A stretch of 64,000 bases of DNA, taken from NCBI GenBank assembly GCA_017347445.1, contig AP021856.1, positions 2,240,613-2,304,612 of the forward strand. The letters are read 5' to 3'. Shown one piece after another: positions 8,310-18,684 of the stretch; positions within the stretch are counted from its first letter, which is position 1; the number at the start of each line of letters is the position of its first letter. The notes under the pieces were generated by a model. That model was not told the DNA's origin, did no database searches, and saw nothing but the letters and a program-made list of their open reading frames with translations. Source of the stretch: Candidatus Brocadia pituitae (GTDB taxonomy: Bacteria; Planctomycetota; Brocadiia; Brocadiales; Brocadiaceae). The position numbers were made by a program, and so were the translations under genes.

Positions 8310-8394
8310 CCATAGATTTCACAAATAACGCAGATGTATTATTTTTATTTGTGATCTGTGTTCTACTTTTAACTGTAGCTATGGCACATTGTGA
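8310..8394 (+). repeat. Imperfect inverted, iterated repeat in the gap before cheA
   Basis: The gap contains CCATAG (8310-8315) and CTATGG (8389-8394) enclosing ATTTCACAAATAACGCAGAT and ATTTGTGATCTGTG, which are roughly complementary. The style matches the flanks of the four-helix-bundle cassettes elsewhere in this cluster, but no coding remnant is left between them here. It is possibly a flank pair that lost its cassette. Confidence 0.4.
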
Positions 8395-8437
8395 TATTTG
8401 TGGCTTCCTTTAAACATGATTAATGAGGACACAGCAT

Positions 8438-10237
8438 ATGGAAGACAATATGAATCTTATGGATGATGTTGAAATTGTTAAGGAATTTCTTGTCGAATCT
8501 AATGACCATCTGGATGACGTTGAATCCAAAATATTGGAGTTGGAAAAGAGCCCCGAAGATATTGATATTATAAACAGCATATTCCGTCCGATTCACAGCA
8601 TAAAAGGTAGCGCTGGTTTCCTGGGTTTGAAAGATATCGGCAAAGTAAGTCACGAATTAGAAACACTCCTGGACGAAGGCAGGAAGGTTAAAATAAAAAT
8701 TACGCCAGAAATCATTGAAGTCCTCTACGAAGGCGTAGACATATTGAAAAAATTAAGAAATACCGTAGTTATAAAGGTTGATAACAAGCAAGCCTCAACA
8801 GATGTGGTTGATTACTACCCATTTATATCAAAAATACCTGTTATTTTAGGATACAATCAAGGGATCGTGCAAAAAGAAAAGACCATGGATAATCCTCCAA
8901 AAGAAAAGCATATTGGTGAAATTTTAGTGGAAACTGGAAATATTAGCAAAGATCAACTGGAAATAGCATTACAAGAACAAACACAGGGAAAACGATTAGG
9001 TGAAATATTGGTCGAAAAAGGAATGACTACATCAGATAAAATTAATGAAGCACTCAAGATCCAATCTATTATAGGCAAACCATCTTCTGAAACAGTTAAA
9101 GTAGATACCCAAAAATTGGACAACCTGATCAATCTTGTGGGCGAACTGGTGATTGCCAATGCCCTTATCTGTGAAACATCAGGAAATACCAATAATGGCT
9201 CAAACAAAAACCTTTCCCACCTCAGCAAGATCGTCAAAGATATACAGGATCAGGTCATGTGCATGAGGATGGTACCTTTGAAATCAACTTTCCAAAAGAT
9301 GGCCAGGCTTGTGCGGGATGTTTCCGCAAAGGTAAACAAGAAGGTTAGGTTGGAAATTGCTGGTGAAGAAACGGAACTGGACAAGACAGTAATTGATGAG
9401 ATCGGTGATCCGCTTGTACATATTATCAGAAACTCAATCGACCATGGAATCGAGCCTAAAGAAGAACGAATGGCGAAAGGGAAACCGGCAGATGGTCTTG
9501 TGCGGTTGAATGCATTCCATCGGGCCGGCAACATCGTCATTGAAATTGAAGATGATGGTAAAGGCCTTTGTAAAGAGAAGATCTTAAAAAAAGGAATTGA
9601 AAAGGGTCTAGTCGAGGAAAATACAACTCTCTCAGATCAGCAAATCTATAATCTCATTTTTGCCGCAGGATTTTCTACAGCAGAAAAGATAACCGATGTC
9701 TCTGGTCGAGGCGTGGGGATGGATGTCGTAAAAAAGAACGTTGAGCGTCTGCGGGGAAAGGTAGATCTTTATACAACAGAAGGAAAAGGAACAAAATTTT
9801 CCATCAAACTGCCGCTTACCTTGGCAATTATTGATGGTATGATTGTACAGGTTGGTCCTGAAAAATACATCGTCCCCATGCTTTCCATCGAGGAATCCAT
9901 CCGTCCAAAGAAGGAAGACGTCTCTACCGTGCAACAACGCGGAGAATTGATTAACGTGCGGGGCGATTTACTACCTATGGTGCGTCTCCATAATTTGTAT
10001 AACGTTGAACCGAAAAGAATGAATCCGTGGGAAGCTCTCATCCTGGTTGTTGAAGGTGAGGGACAAAGATGTGGAATTCTTGTCGACGATCTCCTCGGGC
10101 AACAGCAGATAGTCATTAAGAGTCTGGGGGAACAGTTCCACAATATCAGGGGTATCTCTGGCAGTGCTATACTGGGAGACGGACGCGTTGGCCTTATCTT
10201 AGATGTCGGTGGAATTATGAGCATGGCGCTGAATTAG
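8438..10237 (+). CDS. cheA: Chemotaxis histidine kinase CheA with an MshEN/T2SS-E-like insert
   Basis: This is the central kinase of the cluster, about 599 residues from the ATG at 8438 (TGAGGA eight bases upstream, preferred over an ATG at 8423). The domains are: HPt (residues 1-115, phosphorylated H53 in RPIHSIKGSAG); an unusual insert at about 155-205 with two copies of a GEILVE-G-x(7)-A-L-x(2)-Q type unit, resembling the N-terminal domain of type II secretion ATPases; P3 dimerisation (DNLINLVGELVIANAL); P4 ATPase with HIIRNSIDHGIE (N box), DDGKG (G1) and GRGVGMDVVK (G2); and a C-terminal CheW-like P5. A recognisable P2 CheY-docking domain is not seen, so the insert may take its place. It would phosphorylate both CheYs, CheB and perhaps the CheX-REC fusion. 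Confidence 0.93.
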   Translation: MEDNMNLMDDVEIVKEFLVESNDHLDDVESKILELEKSPEDIDIINSIFRPIHSIKGSAGFLGLKDIGKVSHELETLLDEGRKVKIKITPEIIEVLYEGVDILKKLRNTVVIKVDNKQASTDVVDYYPFISKIPVILGYNQGIVQKEKTMDNPPKEKHIGEILVETGNISKDQLEIALQEQTQGKRLGEILVEKGMTTSDKINEALKIQSIIGKPSSETVKVDTQKLDNLINLVGELVIANALICETSGNTNNGSNKNLSHLSKIVKDIQDQVMCMRMVPLKSTFQKMARLVRDVSAKVNKKVRLEIAGEETELDKTVIDEIGDPLVHIIRNSIDHGIEPKEERMAKGKPADGLVRLNAFHRAGNIVIEIEDDGKGLCKEKILKKGIEKGLVEENTTLSDQQIYNLIFAAGFSTAEKITDVSGRGVGMDVVKKNVERLRGKVDLYTTEGKGTKFSIKLPLTLAIIDGMIVQVGPEKYIVPMLSIEESIRPKKEDVSTVQQRGELINVRGDLLPMVRLHNLYNVEPKRMNPWEALILVVEGEGQRCGILVDDLLGQQQIVIKSLGEQFHNIRGISGSAILGDGRVGLILDVGGIMSMALN

Positions 10238-10294
10238 CGATCAGCTATCAGATGTCAGGGGTCTGGTGTCGGGAGTCAGGGATCGGAGATTGGA
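10237..10294 (+). repeat. Iterated simple repeat bordering a four-helix-bundle gene remnant
   Basis: The sequence just after cheA is built from degenerate units related to GTCAGGG, GTCTGG and GTCGGGA, directly abutting the truncated four-helix-bundle reading frame. Comparable but differently worded iterated repeats flank the other copies of that gene family in this cluster. Confidence 0.45.
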
Positions 10295-10435
10295 GTGATT
10301 AGCTATGTCAGACAGTATCGGAGTTATCGAGATTTAGAGGTTTGGCAGAAGTCAATGGATTTAGCTGTAAAATGTTATCAGATAACAAAAGACTTCCCCA
10401 AAAATGAGTCGTATGGCATGAGCAGTAAGGGCTGA
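10295..10435 (+). pseudogene. Truncated four-helix-bundle (23S-IVP family) gene, N-terminal fragment
   Basis: From a GTG at 10295 the frame reads SYRDLEVWQKSMDLAV and then KCYQITKDFPKNESYGMSS before a TGA at 10433. This is the signature N-terminal half of the TIGR02436/S23 four-helix-bundle family. Full proteins have about 120-146 residues, whereas this frame has 46. A degraded tail (reading KCNDALKLLTDQYY in one frame near 10475) may be the C-terminal rest. It lies in the gap between cheA and the first mcp. See the intact copy at 18186. Confidence 0.7.
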
Positions 10436-10543
10436 TATTCCTTTTTACCAGTTATAAAGGAGGTGCTATTCAATAAATGTAACGATGCCCTCAAATTACT
10501 TACAGACCAATATTATTGTTCCATAAAGAAGGAGTAAAATTGA

Positions 10544-12703
10544 ATGAAGGTGAATTTAAGTACAAAGATTATCTCATTGTTTATTATTGGTGGTTTAGTG
10601 CCCCTGGCTGCAATTGGTGTCTTGAGCTATTCTAGCTCAAGTAAGGCATTGAAAGAACAGGCATTTAACCAACTAGTTTCTGTGAGAAATGTCAAACAAG
10701 CCTTTATTGAGGATTGGTTTTCAAAAAGAAGATGTGATGCGGTAACTCTTTCACAAAATGAGATGGTTGTTAATGCCATAAAGGAATTTAAAAAGGCATT
10801 TAATGAATTGGGGGCTGAAAAAGTGCGAGACTTGTATATCACCAAAAATCCGTTTCCAACAGGCAAGAAACTGGAATATGTTGATGCACAGGACGGTAGC
10901 AATTACAGCAAATTACATGCACGTTATCATCCGGTCTTCAAACAATACCTTGAAGAATATGGGTATTACGATATTTTCCTTTTAGACGCAGAAACTGGAA
11001 ATATCCTTTATACCGTATTTAAAGAACTTGACTTTGGCACCAGTTTAGTCTCAGGACCTTATAATACCAGTAACATTGCAAGATTATATAAAGACGTTAT
11101 TTCTGCAAATACCATCAATGACCATAGTTACGCAAAATTGATCGATTTTGAACCTTATGCCCCTTCGAATGGTGACCCTGCTTCTTTTATAGCAAGTCCT
11201 GTTTATGACGGTACTCATAAAATTGGCGAACTCATGTTCCAATTGCCTATTAATAAGATAGATGCTGTCATGCAGGAACGTTCGGGTTTGGGTGAAACGG
11301 GAGAAACCTATCTGGTAGGATCGGACAAACTGATGCGCTCTAATTCCCGATTTTCAGAAACGCCAACTATCTTTGTCACTAAGGTTGATACAGAAGCTTC
11401 CAAGGATTCCTTAGCCGGTAAGACCGATTCTAAAACTATAAAGGATTATCGTAACATGGCTGTTTTAAGTGCATATGCGCCATTCAATGTACTCGGCCTA
11501 AATTGGTCAATAATAGCAGAGATCGATGAGGCAGAGGCACTCATGGCCGTCAACAATCTAAGGAAGTGGATGATTATCATCGGGCTCGCCTCTGTGGGTT
11601 TTGTTGCTGGGTTAGGTATCCTCGTAATTAAGATTACCAGCAAGATATCAGGACTCTTTAGGGCGCTCCTGGATGACTTAACCGAGAGTTCAACACAGGT
11701 AGCCTCCGCATCAGAACAGATTTCAGCATCAAGCCAGAGTCTTGCACAAGGTGCTACGGAGCAGGCCGCCTCCATCGAAGAGACTTCATCATCCATGGAA
11801 GAAATGTCTTCTATAACGAAACAGAATGCGGAGATTGCCCATAAAGCCTCAGAGTTAGTAACCTCGTGTTTCGTGTCTGCCCAAACAGGCGACGAGTCCA
11901 TCACGAAAGTAAGCGATTCAATGCAGAAAATTAATGAAAGCAGCAATAATATCGTAAACATTATCAAGGTTATTGACGGCATTGCCTTTCAAACTAATCT
12001 TTTGGCGCTCAACGCCGCCGTGGAGGCTGCAAGAGCAGGGGAACACGGAAAAGGTTTTGCAGTCGTTGCTGAAGAGGTGCGAAATCTTGCACAGCGATGT
12101 GCCAGCGCTGCAAAGGATATTACTCAACTGATTGAAGACAGTACAAAAAAGGTTACATCAGGCACAGACCTTGTCAAACATTCAAGTGAAATTCTCAAAG
12201 AAATTGTTTCAAAAGCAAAAAAAGTTACCGATCTCGTAAATGAAATATCCAACGCCTCGAAAGAACAAGCGGAAGGTATTGACCAGGTCTGCAAGGCCAT
12301 TACCCAGATGGATCAGGTTACCCAACAAAATGCTGCGAATGCAGAAGAAACAGCCTCATCCAGTGAGGAACTCTCAGCACAGGCAGAAAGTCTGAAGGCG
12401 CTTGTGGACAGAATTGCCAGGGAGGTTGGTACAGAGAATGAGAATGGCATGGCTTCAGGTAAGAAAGATGTTCAAGTAACGAAGAGACAAGTATATGCTC
12501 CTTCAAGCAAAAAAATCCGATCTCTTCAGAAAAAGGCAGACTGCAGTACAGTAAAAAGATGCAAAGACGAGGGACATAAAGAATCATGGCATGATTCGCT
12601 GGACGAAACTTTGCAGGATGATAAGAGGAATATACATACTGTGTCGGTTACAAAGTCCAGTCGTTTGATTCCCATGGCGGATGACGAATTTAAAGATTTT
12701 TAA
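10544..12703 (+). CDS. Methyl-accepting chemotaxis protein with a periplasmic Cache-type domain
   Basis: This 719-residue transmembrane chemoreceptor has TM1 at about residues 9-28 and a large periplasmic sensor at about 30-338 with the Cache signature [12 protein letters not shown] near 250-262. TM2 is at about 341-363, and a cytoplasmic coiled coil follows with almost no HAMP region. The signalling hairpin tip is canonical ([20 protein letters not shown], then [14 protein letters not shown]). The C-terminus ends [11 protein letters not shown] after a long low-complexity linker, and the other receptor in this cluster ends almost the same way. This is a possible tether for CheR/CheB or CheD. 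The ligand is unknown; Cache domains often bind small organic molecules. The gene lies between cheA and the bacteriohemerythrin. GGAG occurs a few bases before the ATG at 10544. Confidence 0.92.
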
Positions 12704-12749
12704 TAAGACAGTTTGTCCTTGCGTTACTGTTCCACAACAAACGACAATC

Positions 12750-12790
12750 ACCCCTCATTCCCTACCGTTGTATGGTAAGGAATGAGGGGT
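12750..12790 (+). terminator. Strong hairpin after the first mcp
   Basis: ACCCCTCATTCC-C-TACC (12750-12766) pairs with GGTA-A-GGAATGAGGGGT (12774-12790) with one mismatch and a seven-base loop. No T-run follows, so it may end or attenuate transcription only partially, or protect the 3' end of the mcp message. Confidence 0.55.
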
Positions 12791-12845
12791 AGTAAGAACT
12801 TACCAAATTTTATTTATTGAATATTACGATAGGGAGACTGAAGGC

Positions 12846-13250
12846 ATGGCAACGAAATGGAGTGAAGATCTGGCGATAGGTGTAAAAGCAATTGATGAGC
12901 AGCATAAGGGTATATTTAACAGAGTAGATAACTTGCTCAATGCAATGAGGCAAGGTAAGGGTAAAGATGAAATAGGCAAGGTATATGCCTTTTTAGCAGA
13001 TTATGTCGTCAGGCATTTCAAAGATGAAGAGGATTTAATGTCCAAGTACAACTTCAACGGTTGTTCAAAACAAAAAGAAGAGCATACACGATTTATAAAA
13101 GAATTTTCCGGGTTAAAAAGGGAGTTTGAAACAGCCGGCACAAAACCAAATCTGGTGATTGATACACAACGAAAATTGTGCGACTGGTTGACAAATCACA
13201 TAGCCAACGAGGATAAAAAAATAGGTGAATTTATAAAGATGAAGGAGTAA
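12846..13250 (+). CDS. Bacteriohemerythrin
   Basis: This 134-residue single-domain hemerythrin is a non-heme di-iron protein that reversibly binds oxygen. Expected ligands are visible: His in DEQHKGIF (H22 region), H57 and E61 in VRHFKDEE, a His in KQKEEHTRF, and the C-terminal NHIANED (His and Asp). At the position four residues before the HTRF histidine, where HxxxH is usual, the residue is Gln (QKEEH). One iron ligand therefore appears substituted and the oxygen chemistry may differ. GGGAG precedes the ATG by about ten bases. Its place inside a che cluster, next to a heme-c receptor, suggests a role in oxygen sensing or scavenging for an anaerobe. This role is an inference. Confidence 0.88.
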   Translation: MATKWSEDLAIGVKAIDEQHKGIFNRVDNLLNAMRQGKGKDEIGKVYAFLADYVVRHFKDEEDLMSKYNFNGCSKQKEEHTRFIKEFSGLKREFETAGTKPNLVIDTQRKLCDWLTNHIANEDKKIGEFIKMKE

Positions 13251-13258
13251 CCCTTCTA

Positions 13259-13300
13259 TAGATGAAAAATGAAAAATGAAAAAACAAAATGTGAAATGCC
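13259..13300 (+). repeat. Iterated AT-rich repeat in the hemerythrin-cheW gap
   Basis: Three tandem copies of an ATGAAAA unit (near 13262-13283) are followed by degenerate variants and AATCAAAATCAAAT. The wording resembles the simple iterated flanks of the four-helix-bundle cassettes, but no coding trace is visible between here and cheW at 13430. Confidence 0.4.
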
Positions 13301-13429
13301 CAATCAAAATCAAATACAAGAGGTAGGGTTGGTCAAGCGAAGTTATTCACCGCCATGCATGTGGTATCAGCACAAGAAACTGTACCGCATATAACAAAGT
13401 ACTACTTTTCATAACGAAAGGAGAATTAC

Positions 13430-13942
13430 ATGCAAGCAGTAATGGATAAAGAGAAAAAAACAAGCGACCCGGGGGCATTGTCACGTAAAGGAAAATACTT
13501 AACCTTTGTGCTTTGCGATGAGGAGTATGGTATAGAAATACTCAAGGTACGGGAGATTATAGGGATTATGAATATAACACCTGTACCTCAGACGCCCGAT
13601 TACATGAAGGGAGTTATAAATCTCAGGGGAAAGGTGATTCCCGTTATAGACCTGAGATTAAAATTTGGATTTCAAGAGGTTGAGCATACAAAAGAGACAT
13701 GTATCATCGTCGTAGAGGTCAAAAATAAACTTACAGGAATTCTTGTAGATACTGTCTCAGAAGTACTTGACGTCCGCGGCCAAGATTTGGAACCTGCGCC
13801 ACATCTTGGAGATGGTATTAATACGGAAATCTTTTTGGGTATGGCAAAGATAAAAAACAAGGTCAAAATTCTTCTCGACATCGATAAAGTCCTGGGTGCG
13901 GAGGAGATTAATATAGCCGAGAGTTTAACTAGTGTGAGCTAA
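13430..13942 (+). CDS. cheW: Chemotaxis coupling protein CheW
   Basis: This 170-residue CheW-domain protein links the receptors to CheA in signalling arrays. Characteristic segments are YGIEILKVREIIG, the PxxMKGVINLRGKVIPVIDLR core (here TPDYMKGVINLRGKV), and GILVDTVSEVL. A C-terminal extension of about 20 residues follows the domain. GGAG lies eight bases upstream of the ATG at 13430. It is the only stand-alone CheW in the window, so both chemoreceptors probably use it. A decayed four-helix-bundle cassette separates it from the heme-c receptor gene. Confidence 0.93.
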   Translation: MQAVMDKEKKTSDPGALSRKGKYLTFVLCDEEYGIEILKVREIIGIMNITPVPQTPDYMKGVINLRGKVIPVIDLRLKFGFQEVEHTKETCIIVVEVKNKLTGILVDTVSEVLDVRGQDLEPAPHLGDGINTEIFLGMAKIKNKVKILLDIDKVLGAEEINIAESLTSVS

Positions 13943-13970
13943 TTTTGACTTTTAAAAAAATGACTATTTA

Positions 13971-13995
13971 GGTTCAGTGTTCAAAGTTCAGGGTT
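13971..13995 (+). repeat. Left flank of a decayed cassette between cheW and the second mcp
   Basis: GGTTCAGTGTTC followed by AAAGTTCAGGGTT is an iterated GTTCA-type repeat. Its reverse complement resembles the right flank at 14124-14150 (AACCATGAACCC then GGAACCATGAACCT), so the two form an imperfect inverted pair around a four-helix-bundle gene remnant. Confidence 0.55.
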
Positions 13996-14001
13996 AAAGA
14001 C

Positions 14002-14132
14002 ATGAAGATTGAAAGGTTCGAAGATTCAGAGAAGCCTATGAGCAAGCGGGGAGAACCCGTGCTGCCGTCCATGGATTTATCAACTATCTTAAAAAATATG
14101 AACAAAGTAAAGCAACCATCTGTAAACCATGA
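14002..14132 (+). pseudogene. Internally deleted four-helix-bundle (23S-IVP family) gene
   Basis: An ATG at 14002 reads MKIERFED, a typical family N-terminus. After a frame change near 14028 the sequence reads REAYEQAGRTRAAVHGF and INYLKKYEQSK, which resembles a family C-terminus, and ends at TGA (14130-14132). The middle of the gene is missing. The remnant fills the cheW-mcp gap and is flanked by imperfect inverted GTTCA-type repeats. Confidence 0.6.
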
Positions 14133-14150
14133 ACCCGGAACCATGAACCT
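14124..14150 (+). repeat. Right flank of the decayed cassette
   Basis: An iterated AACCATGAACC-type sequence forms the imperfect reverse complement of the left flank at 13971-13995. It overlaps the last codons of the pseudogene. Confidence 0.5.
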
Positions 14151-14237
14151 AATAACCGATTTTTTGTATTTTTAACATTATTATCGTTTTCAGATTCTGA
14201 TTGTTCGTAGCTCATACATAATAAACGGGAGAAAAAA

Positions 14238-15980
14238 ATGATTGGTAAAATGAATTTAATGACAAGACTCATTGTCACGATTATTGCGGTCATTGTGGTT
14301 TCAACGAGTATTCTGACATATATCAATACAAAAAGACAAAAGGCACAGATGTTGGCTGAGGTGCGTACCCAGGCGAGAATGGCAGCAGATCAGCTCATTT
14401 CTACGAGAAAGGTGGTCGCAGAGAAACAAAAGGCAATTAATACCGACTCAAAAGGCAACTATGAATTCAAGGGCGTGATCCCGGCAATTGTGGGACGTGA
14501 GATTGCCGAACATTTCAGTCAAACGACTATTTTCAGGATGAAACAGACGAGCATTAAATACAGAAACTCATCGAATAAGCCAGATGCTTGGGAGGTCCAT
14601 CAGTTAGAAAGATTTGAGAGAGAGCCCGGCTTAGCGGATATATCAGAAATAACGAAATTAGAGAACGGCTCGGAGTTTTTTCGTTTGATGGTTCCCCTGA
14701 AGATTGAGGAGGCATGCTTGAAGTGTCATGGTGACCCTGCAACAAGTTCTACCGGGGATGGCAAAGACATCACGGGCAGACAAATGGAGAATTACAAACT
14801 GGGGGATATACGAGGTGCGATAAGTGTAACTGCGCCAATGACAGCCGTAAATGCGGCGATTGCCTCTAATAGAAATTTCAGCATCTTAGGCAATGGAATT
14901 TACGTGCTTCTGGTAGGCACAATAGTCTTTTTCATCGCTCGAAATATTATCGCCTTATTGAAACGGTTGGTTTTTAACTTAAAAAATGGCGCCGAAGAAG
15001 TTCGTTCGGCAGCAAACCAGATTTCCTCTTCCAGCCAGTCCCTTGCTGATGGAGCTTCGCAGCAGGCTTCTTCCATTGAAGAGACATCTGCATCGATTGA
15101 AGAAATGGCCTCAATGACAGCAAAAAACTCTGATAATGCAAAAGAAGCAAATCAACTCGCAATCAAGGCAAAAACATCGGCTGAAAGTGGGGATGAGGCC
15201 CTGGATACCCTGCAGACAACAATGCGGGACATCAATTCGGGCAATGACAAGGTTCTTTCGATAATCAAATCTATAGATGAAATAGCATTTCAAACGAACC
15301 TTTTGGCCCTCAATGCTGCTGTTGAGGCGGCAAGGGCAGGAGAGCACGGAAAAGGCTTTGCTGTCGTTGCAGAGGAGGTGCGCAATCTCGCACAACGGTG
15401 TTCTGTGGCATCTAAAGAAACTGCAGATTTAATTAACTCAAGGGTGGTAAGCACCGAAAACGCAGCAAAGATTGCCGATAAATTCGCGGCAAATCTTAAA
15501 GAAATTGTAACCGAGGCAAAGAAGGTAACGGATCTTGCCGGTGAAATTGCCGCTGCCTCGCAGGAGCAATCTGATGGTATTAGCCAAATATCCAAGGCAG
15601 TTACGTCAGTAGATACAGTTACTCAGCAAAATGCGGCAAACGCGGAAGAACTAGCGTCATCCAGCGAAGAATTGTCTGCACAAGCGGAAAACTTGAATGC
15701 GATTATTCAAGAACTAGCCATGGAAATTGGGAATATTGACAATGGTTTAAAAACCGATGAAAAACCACAATCTCATACGCATTTCGAAACGAAATCTCGG
15801 CATTCCTTAAATGATGATCTTGGGAATAAAAACAAACAGATGATGCGGGCAAAAAAAGCCAATAATTCTGCAAAGCAAGGCAATAAAGCAAATGGAAGTA
15901 GTTTTAAGAAAAACGAGACCCCACGAAACAGGATGTCAGATGAATTAATACCTCTTAGTGATGATTTCAAAGATTTTTAG
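14238..15980 (+). CDS. Methyl-accepting chemotaxis protein with a heme-c-binding (Tll0287/DUF3365-like) sensor domain
   Basis: This 580-residue receptor has TM1 at about residues 11-29, a periplasmic domain at 30-212 and TM2 at about 217-236. A HAMP-poor linker leads to a full signalling coiled coil ([20 protein letters not shown] tip). The periplasmic part matches the DUF3365/Tll0287-like family and contains CLKCH at residues 160-164, a c-type heme attachment motif placed after [14 protein letters not shown] covalent heme on the outer side of the membrane makes it a candidate sensor of redox state, nitric oxide or oxygen. The ligand is an inference. The protein ends [11 protein letters not shown], nearly identical to the end of the other receptor. 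CheD follows. AGAAAAAA is a weak ribosome site before the ATG. Confidence 0.92.
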
Positions 15981-15996
15981 TGCCTTGTGATTGTCA

Positions 15997-16035
15997 TTCA
16001 CTGGGCATGAATCGATATGATTTGTGCCCAGTGAA
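15997..16035 (+). terminator. Hairpin after the heme-c mcp
   Basis: TTCACTGGGCA (15997-16007) is perfectly complementary to TGCCCAGTGAA (16025-16035), with a 17-base loop. It sits 16 bp after the mcp stop. No T-run follows, so it is either a weak terminator or an mRNA-stabilising hairpin. Confidence 0.5.
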
Positions 16036-16154
16036 CAGAAGGAAATTACCGTGGTAATAAAATGATATGGATATCGCATTGAGGAAATAAATTACCGCAT
16101 AGGCACATATGCACTGCCGTTATGAATGGAAAACGCAAAGGGGAAGCTTACAAC

Positions 16155-16634
16155 ATGAATAATGTTCAAAATGCTATTACGGTTGGTGTGGGTGATCTAA
16201 AGATTACGCAAGCACCTAATGAGTTAAAAACATTACTGGGATCCTGTATAGGAGTTGTATTACACGACCCTGTTAACAGAATTGGCGGGTTGTTACATGT
16301 AATGTTACCGAAAAAACAAGGTAATGATTTAAAGATTACCAAGTATGCTGACACAGGACTCCCATATTTTATTTATCAGATGGTCACCCATGCAGGCGCA
16401 TCCAGAGGGGCACTTTATGCCAAGATATTTGGCGGTGCAAAGATGTTCGAGACCAATGGCCTGCTTAATATTGGAGAATCAAACGAAAAAGAGGTTCGAC
16501 GAATCTTAAAAGACGCAGGGATCAGGATTGTATCGGCGAAAACCGGCGGTACGAAAGGATACAATATTTTGTTTGATACGGACACGGGTGAGGTAACATG
16601 CCGCATATTCGGCGAGGCAATCGTAATTTATTAA
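16155..16634 (+). CDS. cheD: Chemoreceptor glutamine deamidase CheD
   Basis: CheD deamidates Gln residues of chemoreceptors, and in systems with CheC the two proteins bind each other to tune phosphatase activity. The 159-residue protein shows the catalytic Cys31 in LLGSCIGVVLHD, His48 in GGLLHVMLPK, and the later AKIFGGAKMF and NIGESNEKEVRRIL segments typical of the family. The ATG at 16155 is preferred over an in-frame one at 16122 because AAGGGG lies upstream and the conserved region starts about ten residues in. cheC lies downstream beyond a decayed cassette, consistent with a CheC-CheD adaptation pair. Confidence 0.92.
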   Translation: MNNVQNAITVGVGDLKITQAPNELKTLLGSCIGVVLHDPVNRIGGLLHVMLPKKQGNDLKITKYADTGLPYFIYQMVTHAGASRGALYAKIFGGAKMFETNGLLNIGESNEKEVRRILKDAGIRIVSAKTGGTKGYNILFDTDTGEVTCRIFGEAIVIY

Positions 16635-16674
16635 AATCAGTATAATGCTTGCTAAGCACCAGAATACAAGCACC

Positions 16675-16716
16675 AAATAACAAATAAATTCCAATGAAAT
16701 AAATTCAAATGTCTAA
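16675..16716 (+). repeat. Left flank of a decayed cassette between cheD and cheC
   Basis: Iterated AAATAACAAATAAATTCC and AAATAAATTCAAATG units precede the pseudogene. They are approximately the reverse complement of the AATTTATTTGTGATTTGAAAT-type stretch at 17078-17130. Confidence 0.5.
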
Positions 16717-16721
16717 ACAAT

Positions 16722-17056
16722 ATGATTGAGAAGAAAGAACATTCTGTTTTGCCAAGAATGTGACCCTTTATGTAAGGCAATTATCATAAAATGTTTCAAC
16801 CTAGGAACATGGTAAACAAGTAATACGCGCTTCTGGTTCTGTAGGGGCTAATTATATTGAAGCCAATGAAGCCCCTAGTAATAAAGATTTTATCATGAGA
16901 ATAAAGATATGCCGTAAAGAGGCAAAAGAATCTGCTTATTGGCTAAGACTAATAACCGAGACAAATGATGAGCAATATAAACAAGGAGGAGATAAGCTTA
17001 TAAATGAGGCAACTGAGCTAAAGAAGATTTTTTCCGCTATTCTTCTAAAATCATAG
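16722..17056 (+). pseudogene. Frameshifted four-helix-bundle (23S-IVP family) gene
   Basis: The C-terminal two thirds are open from 16805 to a TAG at 17056 and read KQVIRASGSVGANYIEANEA, then KDFIMRIKICRKEAKESAYW, then LRLITETNDEQ. This is a close match to the four-helix-bundle family core. The N-terminal third is broken: from an ATG at 16722 fragments such as FAKNVTLYVRQLS appear in another frame with stops between. It lies between cheD and cheC and has AT-rich inverted flanks. Confidence 0.75.
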
Positions 17057-17077
17057 TAGTTTTCTTTTTGGCTATCA

Positions 17078-17130
17078 TAATTTGTAATTTATTTGTGATT
17101 TGAAATTTACGATTTGGAATCTTTGATTAT
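17078..17130 (+). repeat. Right flank of the decayed cheD-cheC cassette
   Basis: Iterated AATTTATTTGTGATTTGAAA and TTTACGATTTGGAAT units occur here. They are the imperfect reverse complement of the left flank at 16675-16716. Confidence 0.5.
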
Positions 17131-17178
17131 GAGCCCTTTGTGGTTATGAAAGTTTAATGAAAATTGAAAGGTAAAATT

Positions 17179-17784
17179 ATGAATATTACTCAAGATCGTA
17201 TGAAAGTGATTGAAATAATGTCTAGGCTTAGTATCGACAGGGCTTCCAGGGCTCTCTCCAAGACACTAAAAACCGGCGCTATGATTTCACTTTCAAATGT
17301 GTACATAGCAGATTTAAGCGAGACGACTGAAAAGATGAATGATGATTTCCGGGAGATGACTGGTGTTATGGTCGATTTTAAAGGGAACATTCGTTGTAAG
17401 CTTTTATTCATGCTGCCGGTAAACGGTTCATTCATTCTCACCGATCTCTTTCTCAGACAACCTGCCGGCACCACAAAAGAATATAATGAATTTACTGAAA
17501 GTGTAATTCAGGAATTAGGAAACATTCTTGCGAGTCATATCAGCAATGCCCTGGTATCCGATTTTGACGCTACATTAGTACCAGAGCCCCCACATGTGCA
17601 TAATGATTATGCAGGAGTTATGTTTGCAAATCTAGTCATGGAACAAGGCATGAGTGATGACAAACTATTGCTGATGGAGACAAAATTTGTAATTAGTAAA
17701 AATGAACTCGAATGTTACCTTTTTTTAGTACCGGAGATGACGTCATTTGTAAAGCTGTTAGACAATATAGGAGTAAAAACATGA
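17179..17784 (+). CDS. cheC: CheC-like CheY-P phosphatase
   Basis: This 201-residue protein is of the CheC/FliY-type phosphatase family. A catalytic ExxN is visible as E112-L-G-N115 in QELGNILASHISNAL. The first CheC active site, normally ExGNIGxxNA near the N-terminus, is replaced by IEIMSRLSIDRASRALS, so only the second site looks functional. The ATG at 17179 with AAAGG about eight bases upstream is preferred over a TTG at 17164. The stop overlaps the start of the next cheY (ATGA), which is strong translational coupling between a phosphatase and its probable substrate. With CheD present, the classical CheC-CheD regulation is plausible. Confidence 0.85.
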   Translation: MNITQDRMKVIEIMSRLSIDRASRALSKTLKTGAMISLSNVYIADLSETTEKMNDDFREMTGVMVDFKGNIRCKLLFMLPVNGSFILTDLFLRQPAGTTKEYNEFTESVIQELGNILASHISNALVSDFDATLVPEPPHVHNDYAGVMFANLVMEQGMSDDKLLLMETKFVISKNELECYLFLVPEMTSFVKLLDNIGVKT

Positions 17785-18173
17785 AGAAGATATTAGTAGT
17801 AGACGACGCCAAAGTCATAAGGATGGTAATAAAACGACTTTTGATACAACACGGATATCAGGTTGCAGGTGAAGCTGGGAATGGCAGGGAGGCATTTGAA
17901 AAATACAAAGAATTAAGGCCTGACGCCGTAACAATGGATATTATAATGCCAGAGGTGGACGGAATTCAAGGGTTGAAAGAGATCCTTGCCTTTGATAAAC
18001 AAGCAAAGGTAATCATGATTTCAGCCATAGACCAACGTGATTCTTTAACGGAGGCAATCAGAAACGGCGCTACCGATTATGTGGTAAAGCCATTTGAAGA
18101 CGACCGGATGATATCGACATTAAAAAATATTTTTGGCGAGAATCAAGGAGCTGCAGTAGGCAGTAGGCAGTAG
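17781..18173 (+). CDS. cheY: CheY-type single-domain response regulator (second copy)
   Basis: The 130-residue receiver domain has D8-D9, phospho-acceptor D53 (AVTMDIIMPEVDG), a Ser in MISAIDQ and Lys in VVKPFED. It overlaps the cheC stop by four bases (ATGA), so the two are translated together. Its last codons (GAAVGSRQ) are encoded by the left iterated GCAGTAG repeat of the following cassette. The natural C-terminus may therefore have been replaced or extended when that repeat arrived. Compared with the first CheY (6266) it is closer to the classic flagellar-type CheY of CheC-containing bacteria, which is a subjective judgement. Confidence 0.92.
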   Translation: MKKILVVDDAKVIRMVIKRLLIQHGYQVAGEAGNGREAFEKYKELRPDAVTMDIIMPEVDGIQGLKEILAFDKQAKVIMISAIDQRDSLTEAIRNGATDYVVKPFEDDRMISTLKNIFGENQGAAVGSRQ

Positions 18174-18175
18174 GC
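18153..18175 (+). repeat. Left iterated flank of the intact four-helix-bundle cassette
   Basis: Three tandem GCAGTAG units (18153-18173) occur here. The reverse complement (CTACTGC repeats) closely matches the right-hand CTTACTGCTTACTG at 18646-18659. The repeat runs into the last codons of the preceding cheY. Confidence 0.65.
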
Positions 18176-18185
18176 AAAATAAACA

Positions 18186-18626
18186 ATGGATACAACGGAT
18201 ATCAATAATTTTAAAAGTTTAATGGTTTACAAAAAGGCTTTTTGTCTGGCAATGGAAATTTATCACCTTACGAAGAGTTTCCCTAAAGATGAACTTTATT
18301 CGTTAATAAGTCAAATCAGGAAGTCGTCACGCTCGGTTTGCTCAAATATTGCTGAAGGATACAGAAAACGCCAATACCCTGCACATTTCGTAAGCAAAGT
18401 ATCTGACGCAGATATGGAGAATAGCGAGACTCAAGTATGGATAGATTTTGCCTTTCATTGCAAATATATAAACGAACAAACTCAAACAGATTTGCTCAAT
18501 AAATCAACAGAAGTTGGAAGACTGCTAAATTATATAGTTGAAAATCCTGAAAAGTATTTAAGAAAGAACATGAAAACCGTTCCTGACAGGTGCAGGAATA
18601 ATCACAGAGAAACGAATGGCAAATAA
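18186..18626 (+). CDS. Four-helix-bundle protein (23S rRNA intervening-sequence protein family), intact
   Basis: The 146-residue protein belongs to the TIGR02436/S23 four-helix-bundle family, whose first members were found in intervening sequences of 23S rRNA. FKSLMVYKKAFCLAMEIYHL, FPKDELYSLISQIRKSSRS, VCSNIAEGY and LGRLLNYI-like GRLLNYIVENPEK segments are typical. No enzymatic motif is known. Related Avd proteins of diversity-generating retroelements share the fold, but no reverse transcriptase is present here. It interrupts the cheY-cheR gap and is bordered by imperfect inverted iterated repeats. It is the only intact one of four family copies in this cluster. The gene looks like a mobile or recurrently inserted passenger rather than a chemotaxis component. 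Confidence 0.85.
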   Translation: MDTTDINNFKSLMVYKKAFCLAMEIYHLTKSFPKDELYSLISQIRKSSRSVCSNIAEGYRKRQYPAHFVSKVSDADMENSETQVWIDFAFHCKYINEQTQTDLLNKSTEVGRLLNYIVENPEKYLRKNMKTVPDRCRNNHRETNGK

Positions 18627-18643
18627 TGTATCATACCGCTGGA

Positions 18644-18684
18644 TGCTTACTGCTTACTGTCAACGGTAAAATGCCAACTGCCCA
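18644..18684 (+). repeat. Right iterated flank of the intact four-helix-bundle cassette
   Basis: TGCTTACTGCTTACTG (18644-18659) followed by TGCCAACTGCCCA. This is the imperfect reverse complement of the GCAGTAG repeats to the left of the gene. Confidence 0.6.

What the first reader, a model, noticed from the sequence alone, without database searches (positions are those of the whole stretch)
8310..18684. Recurrent four-helix-bundle gene cassettes in the gaps of the chemotaxis cluster
Four copies of a 23S-IVP-type four-helix-bundle gene lie in four different gaps of one cluster: 10295 (N-terminal piece), 14002 (N plus C pieces), 16722 (frameshifted) and 18186 (intact). Three are bordered by imperfect inverted, internally iterated simple repeats whose wording differs between copies: GTTCA-type at 13971/14124, AAATAA-type at 16675/17078 and GCAGTAG-type at 18153/18644. 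The copy at 10295 has an iterated repeat on its left only. Similar flanks without a gene lie at 8310 and 13259. No transposase is attached. The pattern implies repeated insertion and decay of a small cassette with self-similar flanks, not ordinary gene duplication. The mechanism and the protein's role are unknown to me.
Basis: partly seen in the sequence, partly recalled or inferred. Interest (0 to 1): 0.8.

Follow-up and report, generated by a model that had tools for sequence, protein, structure and literature searches.

The report
Mobile hairpin-bounded IVP gene cassettes
Small genes of a widespread but unexplained bacterial protein family sit between inverted arrays of 7-letter DNA repeats, and these packages have entered gaps between genes, and even a coding gene, again and again and nearly always in the sense direction, which points to a little-noticed kind of mobile element.

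Summary
The observation largely holds. [quoted passage not shown] PF05635, TIGR02436). In ten congeners the same four gaps are variously empty, occupied by other IVP subfamilies, occupied by GxxExxY cassettes, or left with gene-less arms, so insertion and decay were repeated.

The unit is an ORF bracketed by inverted, iterated arms. In 68 congeneric copies and 79 loci across Bacteria, arm pairing is far above controls and the arms have a period of 7 nt. The 5' arm is mostly G-rich. At different sites, copies at least 80% identical share arm wording and copies under 60% do not, so arms travel with the gene. Copies lie in sense between co-directional genes (47 of 51) and the ORF is under purifying selection (dN/dS about 0.1). 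In six genomes a cassette sits inside a DNA-methylase gene with both reading frames open for about 120 codons.

Best reading: an IVS-like, transcribed mobile cassette, related to the classical 23S IVS but living in mRNAs. How it moves is inferred, not shown. The gene-less sites at 8310 and 13259 are weak.

The parts
10238..10294 (+). 5' arm of remnant 1 (iterated GATCAG/GTCAGG-type words); 3' arm lost
   Evidence: right arm present in G009 copy of the same gap; no pairing in the window
10295..10435 (+). N-terminal IVP remnant in the cheA-mcp1 gap
   Evidence: PF05635 E=1.7e-9
13970..13998 (+). 5' arm of remnant 2 (GTTCAGG-type)
   Evidence: RNA duplex with 14118-14166, 1/500 shuffles as good
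14002..14117 (+). IVP remnant with internal deletion of about 260 bp, cheW-mcp2 gap
   Evidence: blastn to the G010 copy, N and C pieces
14124..14150 (+). 3' arm of remnant 2
16673..16715 (+). 5' arm of remnant 3 (CAAATAA-type)
   Evidence: local alignment with the 3' flank 0/100 shuffles
16722..17054 (+). frameshifted IVP remnant, cheD-cheX gap
   Evidence: HMM 49.7 bits with 2 stops
17080..17120 (+). 3' arm of remnant 3
18153..18176 (+). 5' arm of intact cassette (GCAGTAG heptamers), overlapping the 3' end of the cheY reading frame, whose stop codon lies in the array
   Evidence: heptamer detector 18149-18181; duplex 0/500; ORF 17712-18173
18186..18626 (+). intact IVP/S23 gene, 146 aa, cheY-cheR gap
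   Evidence: PDB relatives 2rld and 2gsc
18643..18658 (+). 3' arm of intact cassette (pairing extends towards 18678)
13256..13291 (+). one-sided 7-nt array (ATGAAAA) without gene; possible relic, weak
   Evidence: heptamer detector; pairing not above chance

Best explanation
The four genes are members and remnants of an IVS-like mobile cassette: an IVP/S23 ORF held between a usually G-rich 5' arm and a complementary 3' arm, each a short tandem array of one 7-nt word. The cassette lands in sense orientation in permissive parts of transcribed regions (operon gaps, a surplus loop of a methylase gene and, in the published cases, loops of 23S rRNA). There the arms fold as a helix with the ORF in the loop, so the insertion does little harm, and the host transcript supplies expression. 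Cassettes later decay by frameshift and internal deletion, leaving gene-less arms. Arms are carried with the gene; their wording drifts by slippage within an array plus copying between the two arms, so each subfamily has its own word but keeps the 7-nt period and the pairing. Shown here: anatomy, period, sequence complementarity, arms travelling with the gene, occupied/empty polymorphism, sense bias, purifying selection, decay. Inferred: that the helix forms in RNA, that expression is by read-through, how arm wording changes, and that IVP (related to the Avd protein of diversity-generating retroelements) binds the arms and helps movement with an enzyme supplied in trans.
For: Different IVP subfamilies, empty sites and gene-less arms in the same gaps of ten congeners. 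Arm pairing in 44/68 genus copies against 1/70 small control ORFs and in 57/79 loci across Bacteria. Period 7: autocorrelation 0.61 against 0.32 and 0.59 against 0.31. Different-site copies of >=80% identity share arm wording 11/11, of <60% 0-2%. Sense orientation between co-directional genes 47/51 against 51% baseline. dN/dS 0.02-0.27. In-gene cassette with both frames open. Coxiella 23S IVS has tandem heptamers before its S23p start and is cut out by RNase III (PMC4990558).
Against: No mobilising enzyme identified and no clear target-site duplication. About a third of copies show no significant arm pairing. No near-identical copies at two sites of one genome were seen, so recent movement is not caught. 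RNA structure and expression were not measured. Synonymous divergence at shared sites is lower in IVP than in flanking genes, which the simple model of old insertion and decay does not predict.
Confidence: 0.62

Rival explanations
1. A non-autonomous DNA transposon (MITE-like) moved in trans by an IS or Y1 transposase, with IVP as a passenger; the sense bias is what selection left.
For: Inverted flanks and repeated insertion; two L006-type copies (L123, L127) lie inside a larger element with inverted ends CATAAGCGCTAAGTTG; the genome has Y1 transposases.
Against: No shared terminal sequence: arm wording differs between subfamilies and the flanks of the Y1 genes are a different kind of palindrome. 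Strong sense bias. No clear target duplication. The ORF is under purifying selection, unlike a mere passenger.
Confidence: 0.2
2. The cassettes are host regulatory modules: the arms control processing or stability of polycistronic mRNA and the IVP is an RNA-binding regulator kept for the host.
For: Purifying selection on IVP, position between co-directional genes, both reading frames kept open in the methylase gene.
Against: Rapid turnover of presence and type in the same gaps and frequent decay.
Confidence: 0.13
3. Homing-like spread: cassettes jump between species into the same sites, guided by site sequence, more recently than the hosts diverged.
For: At shared sites IVP dS is lower than in flanking and che genes in 12/14 groups, median 0.46 against 1.13, p=4e-4.
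Against: No co-conversion tract and the arms are less conserved than the neighbouring genes; extra constraint on synonymous sites would give the same. In the methylase copies double coding itself lowers dS.
Confidence: 0.25
4. Chance: short AT-rich spacers with accidental repeats, plus one old gene family duplicated in the cluster.
For: The flanks of 10295, 8310 and 13259 are not significant for pairing.
Against: Control ORFs, mismatched arm pairs and shuffles; 0 heptamer arrays in 395 kb of background; different subfamilies and empty sites in the same gaps.
Confidence: 0.02

Closest known systems
23S rRNA intervening sequence (IVS) with S23p ORF (Leptospira, Coxiella and others)
   Same: Same protein family; ORF in the loop of a stem formed by flanking inverted repeats; in Coxiella three tandem GACAGAT heptamers just before the start codon (PMC4990558); sense orientation
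   Different: Here the cassettes lie in protein-coding transcripts, not rRNA; many subfamilies with differing arm words; both arms iterated; RNase III excision not tested
Rickettsia palindromic elements (RPE)
   Same: Palindromic inserts kept in frame inside protein-coding genes, as in the methylase gene here (RPE from general knowledge; one search found papers that mention them)
   Different: RPEs carry no IVP ORF and are families of similar sequence; here arm wording differs between subfamilies
Heptamer repeats of bacteria (STRR of cyanobacteria; GGGAATC of Xanthomonas; TAACTGA of Beggiatoaceae)
   Same: 7-nt units; in Xanthomonas about 70 pairs in inverted orientation (PMC4692102)
   Different: No link to IVP genes was found in the passages read (PMC4692102, PMC4679880); the TAACTGA arrays are direct repeats
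REP elements with RAYT transposases
   Same: Dispersed palindromes between genes
   Different: In this genome the flanks of two of the Y1 genes are palindromes of another kind and the rest have no strong arms; no heptamers
Avd of diversity-generating retroelements
   Same: Related protein: bAvd E=1e-9 and DivGenRetAVD E=4e-7 to the window protein; structural relation of Avd and IVP stated in PMC10053308
   Different: Both matches lie below the curated cut-offs; no adjacent RT was seen in the cluster
Integron gene cassettes (general knowledge)
   Same: Small mobile gene with variable imperfect inverted repeats, one orientation
   Different: attC lies wholly on one side of the ORF; here the arms bracket it; attC core sites and integrase were not searched for

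Membership tests
IVP/S23 protein family (PF05635, TIGR02436) | Score over the curated cut-off | tested here: met
   18186: 113 bits (cut-off 33.8) and 100.6 bits (cut-off 24); 10295 piece 38.3 bits in Pfam; 16722 by whole-genome search 49.7 bits
23S rRNA IVS | Location inside a 23S rRNA gene | tested here: not met
   The window copies lie between chemotaxis genes
23S rRNA IVS | Flanking inverted repeats able to form a stem around the ORF | tested here: met
   18186 and 14002 in the window; 44/68 in the genus; 57/79 across Bacteria
23S rRNA IVS | Excision from the transcript by RNase III | not testable with these tools
   Needs RNA data
DNA transposon / MITE | Conserved terminal inverted repeats within the family | tested here: not met
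   Arm wording unrelated below 60% protein identity
DNA transposon / MITE | Target-site duplication | tested here: inconclusive
   Gap alignments show no clear duplication
REP/RAYT | Same palindromes at the Y1 transposase genes | tested here: not met
Diversity-generating retroelement Avd | Score over the Avd cut-off | tested here: not met
   PF22296 39.3 bits (cut-off 40); NF033474 30.4 bits (cut-off 80)
RPE-like in-frame palindromes | Insert keeps the host reading frame open | tested here: met
   Methylase gene in six genomes; not applicable to the intergenic window copies
Integron cassette | One-sided attC with core sites and an integrase | not tested
   Arms bracket the ORF instead of lying together on one side, so not pursued

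The most novel reading that the evidence does not exclude
IVP is the dedicated protein of a bacteria-wide class of mobile cassettes that act at the RNA level: its ring reads the heptamer arms, perhaps one unit per subunit, and brings a reverse transcriptase or other enzyme to insert the cassette in sense into transcribed permissive sites. Many of the unexplained 7-nt repeats of bacterial genomes would be its solo or decayed arms, and the 23S IVS its rRNA-resident branch.
Probability: 0.2. Interest if true: 0.92.

Novelty: new variant of a known kind. Interest (0 to 1): 0.74.

Why it matters
IVP/S23 genes are common in bacteria but have no agreed function, and the excess of 7-nt repeats in bacterial genomes has no accepted cause (PMC4692102). 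The data here tie the two together: the same 7-nt period brackets IVP genes from Planctomycetota to Bacteroidota, Clostridia and Cyanobacteria, and the arms are carried by the gene. That makes direct tests possible: does IVP bind its own arms, do the arms pair in RNA, is the transcript cut there. The methylase case is also a well-supported dual-coding insertion, about 120 codons open in two frames in six genomes.

Tried and rejected
Target-site duplications: alignments of occupied and empty che gaps gave no clear one. A common outer motif (GTAACTANTTAGG) appeared at only a few copies. RAYT as mobiliser: flanks do not match. Co-conversion around shared sites as a mark of homing: none seen. Phage carriage: no match in 50,697 phage records with one query at E 1e-5; plasmids: 32 records, mostly cyanobacteria. 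A search centred on a cyanobacterial locus was not accepted by the tool. Literature: no paper found that links IVP genes to iterated inverted flanks, apart from the heptamer note for Coxiella; the library holds open-access papers only. Whether the Xanthomonas GGGAATC arrays flank IVP genes could not be checked here. No structure prediction was run, because solved relatives exist (2rld, 2gsc).
Full report
What was checked. The window is 2240613-2304612 of a 4.08-Mb single-contig genome, which I take to be an anammox planctomycete of the Brocadia group (inference from gene content and size; no name was given). The chemotaxis genes run from about 6.7 to 20.9 kb. HMM scans confirm an intact IVP/S23 gene at 18186 and remnants at 10295 and 16722. 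The 14002 remnant is confirmed by blastn against the copy in the same gap of congener G010: N and C ends are fused by a deletion of about 260 bp. Three of the genome's ten HMM matches lie in this 10.4-kb stretch (p=2e-6), and 14 of 97 genus-wide matches lie in the che cluster against 0.33 expected. The cluster is a hotspot, although this test was chosen after seeing the data.

Occupied and empty sites. The cluster was taken from ten congeners and seven more distant relatives. In the cheA-mcp1, cheW-mcp2, cheD-cheX and cheY-cheR gaps the congeners hold IVP genes whose best matches are six different IVP genes of the window's genome, GxxExxY-type genes, gene-less arms, or nothing (94 bp in G007 cheW-mcp2, 31 bp in G004 cheD-cheX, 41 bp in G009 cheY-cheR). 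In G009 cheW-mcp2 the arms remain without the gene.

Arms. For 68 congeneric copies the left flank was aligned with the reverse complement of the right flank. Forty-four score 25 or more, against 4% of left/right pairs taken from different copies, 9 of 278 control ORFs and 1 of 70 small control ORFs of the same genome. In a GTDB-wide scan (Nitrospirota, Bacteroidota, Clostridia, Acidobacteriota, Cyanobacteria, Planctomycetota, CPR and others), selected by protein similarity and not by flanks, 57 of 79 loci score 25 or more and 53 beat all 50 shuffles.

Period. Autocorrelation of the 5' arms peaks at lag 7 and its multiples: 0.61 and 0.54 at lags 7 and 14 in the genus; 0.59, 0.56 and 0.51 at lags 7, 14 and 21 across Bacteria; about 0.31 in shuffles. 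The 5' arm has more G than C in 49 bacteria-wide arms and fewer in 4; in the genus 29 and 8. A strict heptamer detector finds none in 395 kb of background, two in the window (13256-13291, 18149-18181), and arrays within 150 nt of 28 of 68 copies. The Coxiella 23S IVS has three tandem GACAGAT heptamers just before its S23p start (PMC4990558), so the classical IVS shares this unit length. Cyanobacterial plasmid copies show the same (four of five fetched), two of them in the cas6-cas4 gap of CRISPR loci with different words.

Arms travel with the gene. Among different-site pairs of at least 80% protein identity 11 of 11 share arm wording; at 60-80% 21% do; below 60% 0-2% do. L124/L127 (G005) and L005/L007 (window genome) are pairs within one genome. 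Reading copies side by side shows that similarity ends shortly outside the arms.

Orientation. Where both neighbours could be called, 47 of 51 copies lie between two genes on their own strand, against 51% for any gene triple in this genome (p=3e-10) and 36% for random insertion into gaps (p=5e-17). Copies at shared sites are not independent, so the p-values are too small, but the bias is clear. In the bacteria-wide set 53 of 72 are co-directional on both sides.

Selection. dN/dS between related copies is 0.02-0.27 where it could be computed. The protein is kept even though single copies decay.

A cassette inside a gene. In G000, G004, G007, G008, G009 and G031 a cassette lies in a DNA-methylase gene between LIGQPD and GFDYYN. 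G022 has a plain 20-residue linker there; G005, G010, G012 and G027 have other short inserts. The host frame is open through the cassette while the IVP frame overlaps it: 120-122 codons with 0 stops in the host frame where about 7-8 are expected, P at most 4e-4 per genome by synonymous randomisation, and 0 of 48 other intact IVP genes have an open second frame. The six genomes are not independent, and the host gene is interrupted elsewhere in G000 and has stops in G009, so the host protein may be functional only in some. The same gene carries gene-less iterated hairpins in frame whose words match that species' cassette arms in G004, G007 and G008.

Age at shared sites. IVP dS is below that of che genes for the same genome pairs in 12 of 14 groups (median 0.46 against 1.13, p=4e-4), and mostly below the flanking genes too. 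Late spread into the same sites or extra constraint on synonymous sites would both give this. Arms are less conserved than neighbouring genes and no co-conversion tract is seen. I leave it open.

How it most likely works. Shown: a unit of gene plus iterated inverted arms, inserted repeatedly into permissive transcribed places, in sense, with selection on the protein and loss by decay. Inferred: the arms pair in RNA and limit harm to the host transcript, the ORF is read from host transcription, and IVP binds the arms and recruits an enzyme for movement. The genome has reverse transcriptases and Y1 transposases, but nothing here ties either to the cassettes.

Limits. Neighbour calls use ORF length only. 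Starts of some copies are approximate. Flank tests for the single window copies are mixed: strong for 14002 and 18186, dependent on method for 16722, absent for 10295, 8310 and 13259. The literature search covers open-access papers only.

Noticed in passing
L153-L157, L168 (methylase gene of G000, G008, G004, G009, G007, G031): IVP cassette inside a DNA-methylase gene with host and IVP frames both open for about 120 codons; other short palindromic inserts occupy the same spot in G005, G010, G012 and G027.
   Followed up: yes
che cluster gaps of G003, G006, G007, G010 (L050, L037, L035, L036); L051-L055 in the window's genome: GxxExxY (PDDEXK_3) genes occupy the same gaps and have iterated inverted arms of their own (CACAAAGA, CGCAGAG words, longer units); 5 of 7 own-genome matches show arms. 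A second cassette type of the same style.
   Followed up: partly
L273 (Pseudanabaena galeata plasmid), L277 (Anabaena sp. 90 plasmid): IVP cassettes sit between cas6 and cas4 in two cyanobacteria with different heptamer words, another recurrent gap.
   Followed up: partly
window 17182-18173 (cheX, cheY) and L035-L050: cheX and cheY come in two divergent forms among congeners (about 91/73% against 75-78/44-53% identity to the window), as if alleles had been exchanged.
   Followed up: no
window 12846-13250 and L038, L042: The hemerythrin-like gene between mcp1 and cheW in the window is found next to cheB instead in G008 and G009.
   Followed up: no
L123, L127: Two L006-type cassettes lie inside a larger element with inverted ends CATAAGCGCTAAGTTG / CTTAGCGCTTATG, MITE-like.
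   Followed up: no
G000:C1:2396368-2397824: A Y1 transposase match lies directly beside a reverse transcriptase match on the same strand.
   Followed up: no
window 18149-18181: The stop codon of the cheY reading frame lies inside the GCAGTAG array, so the cassette arm supplies the end of CheY.
   Followed up: partly
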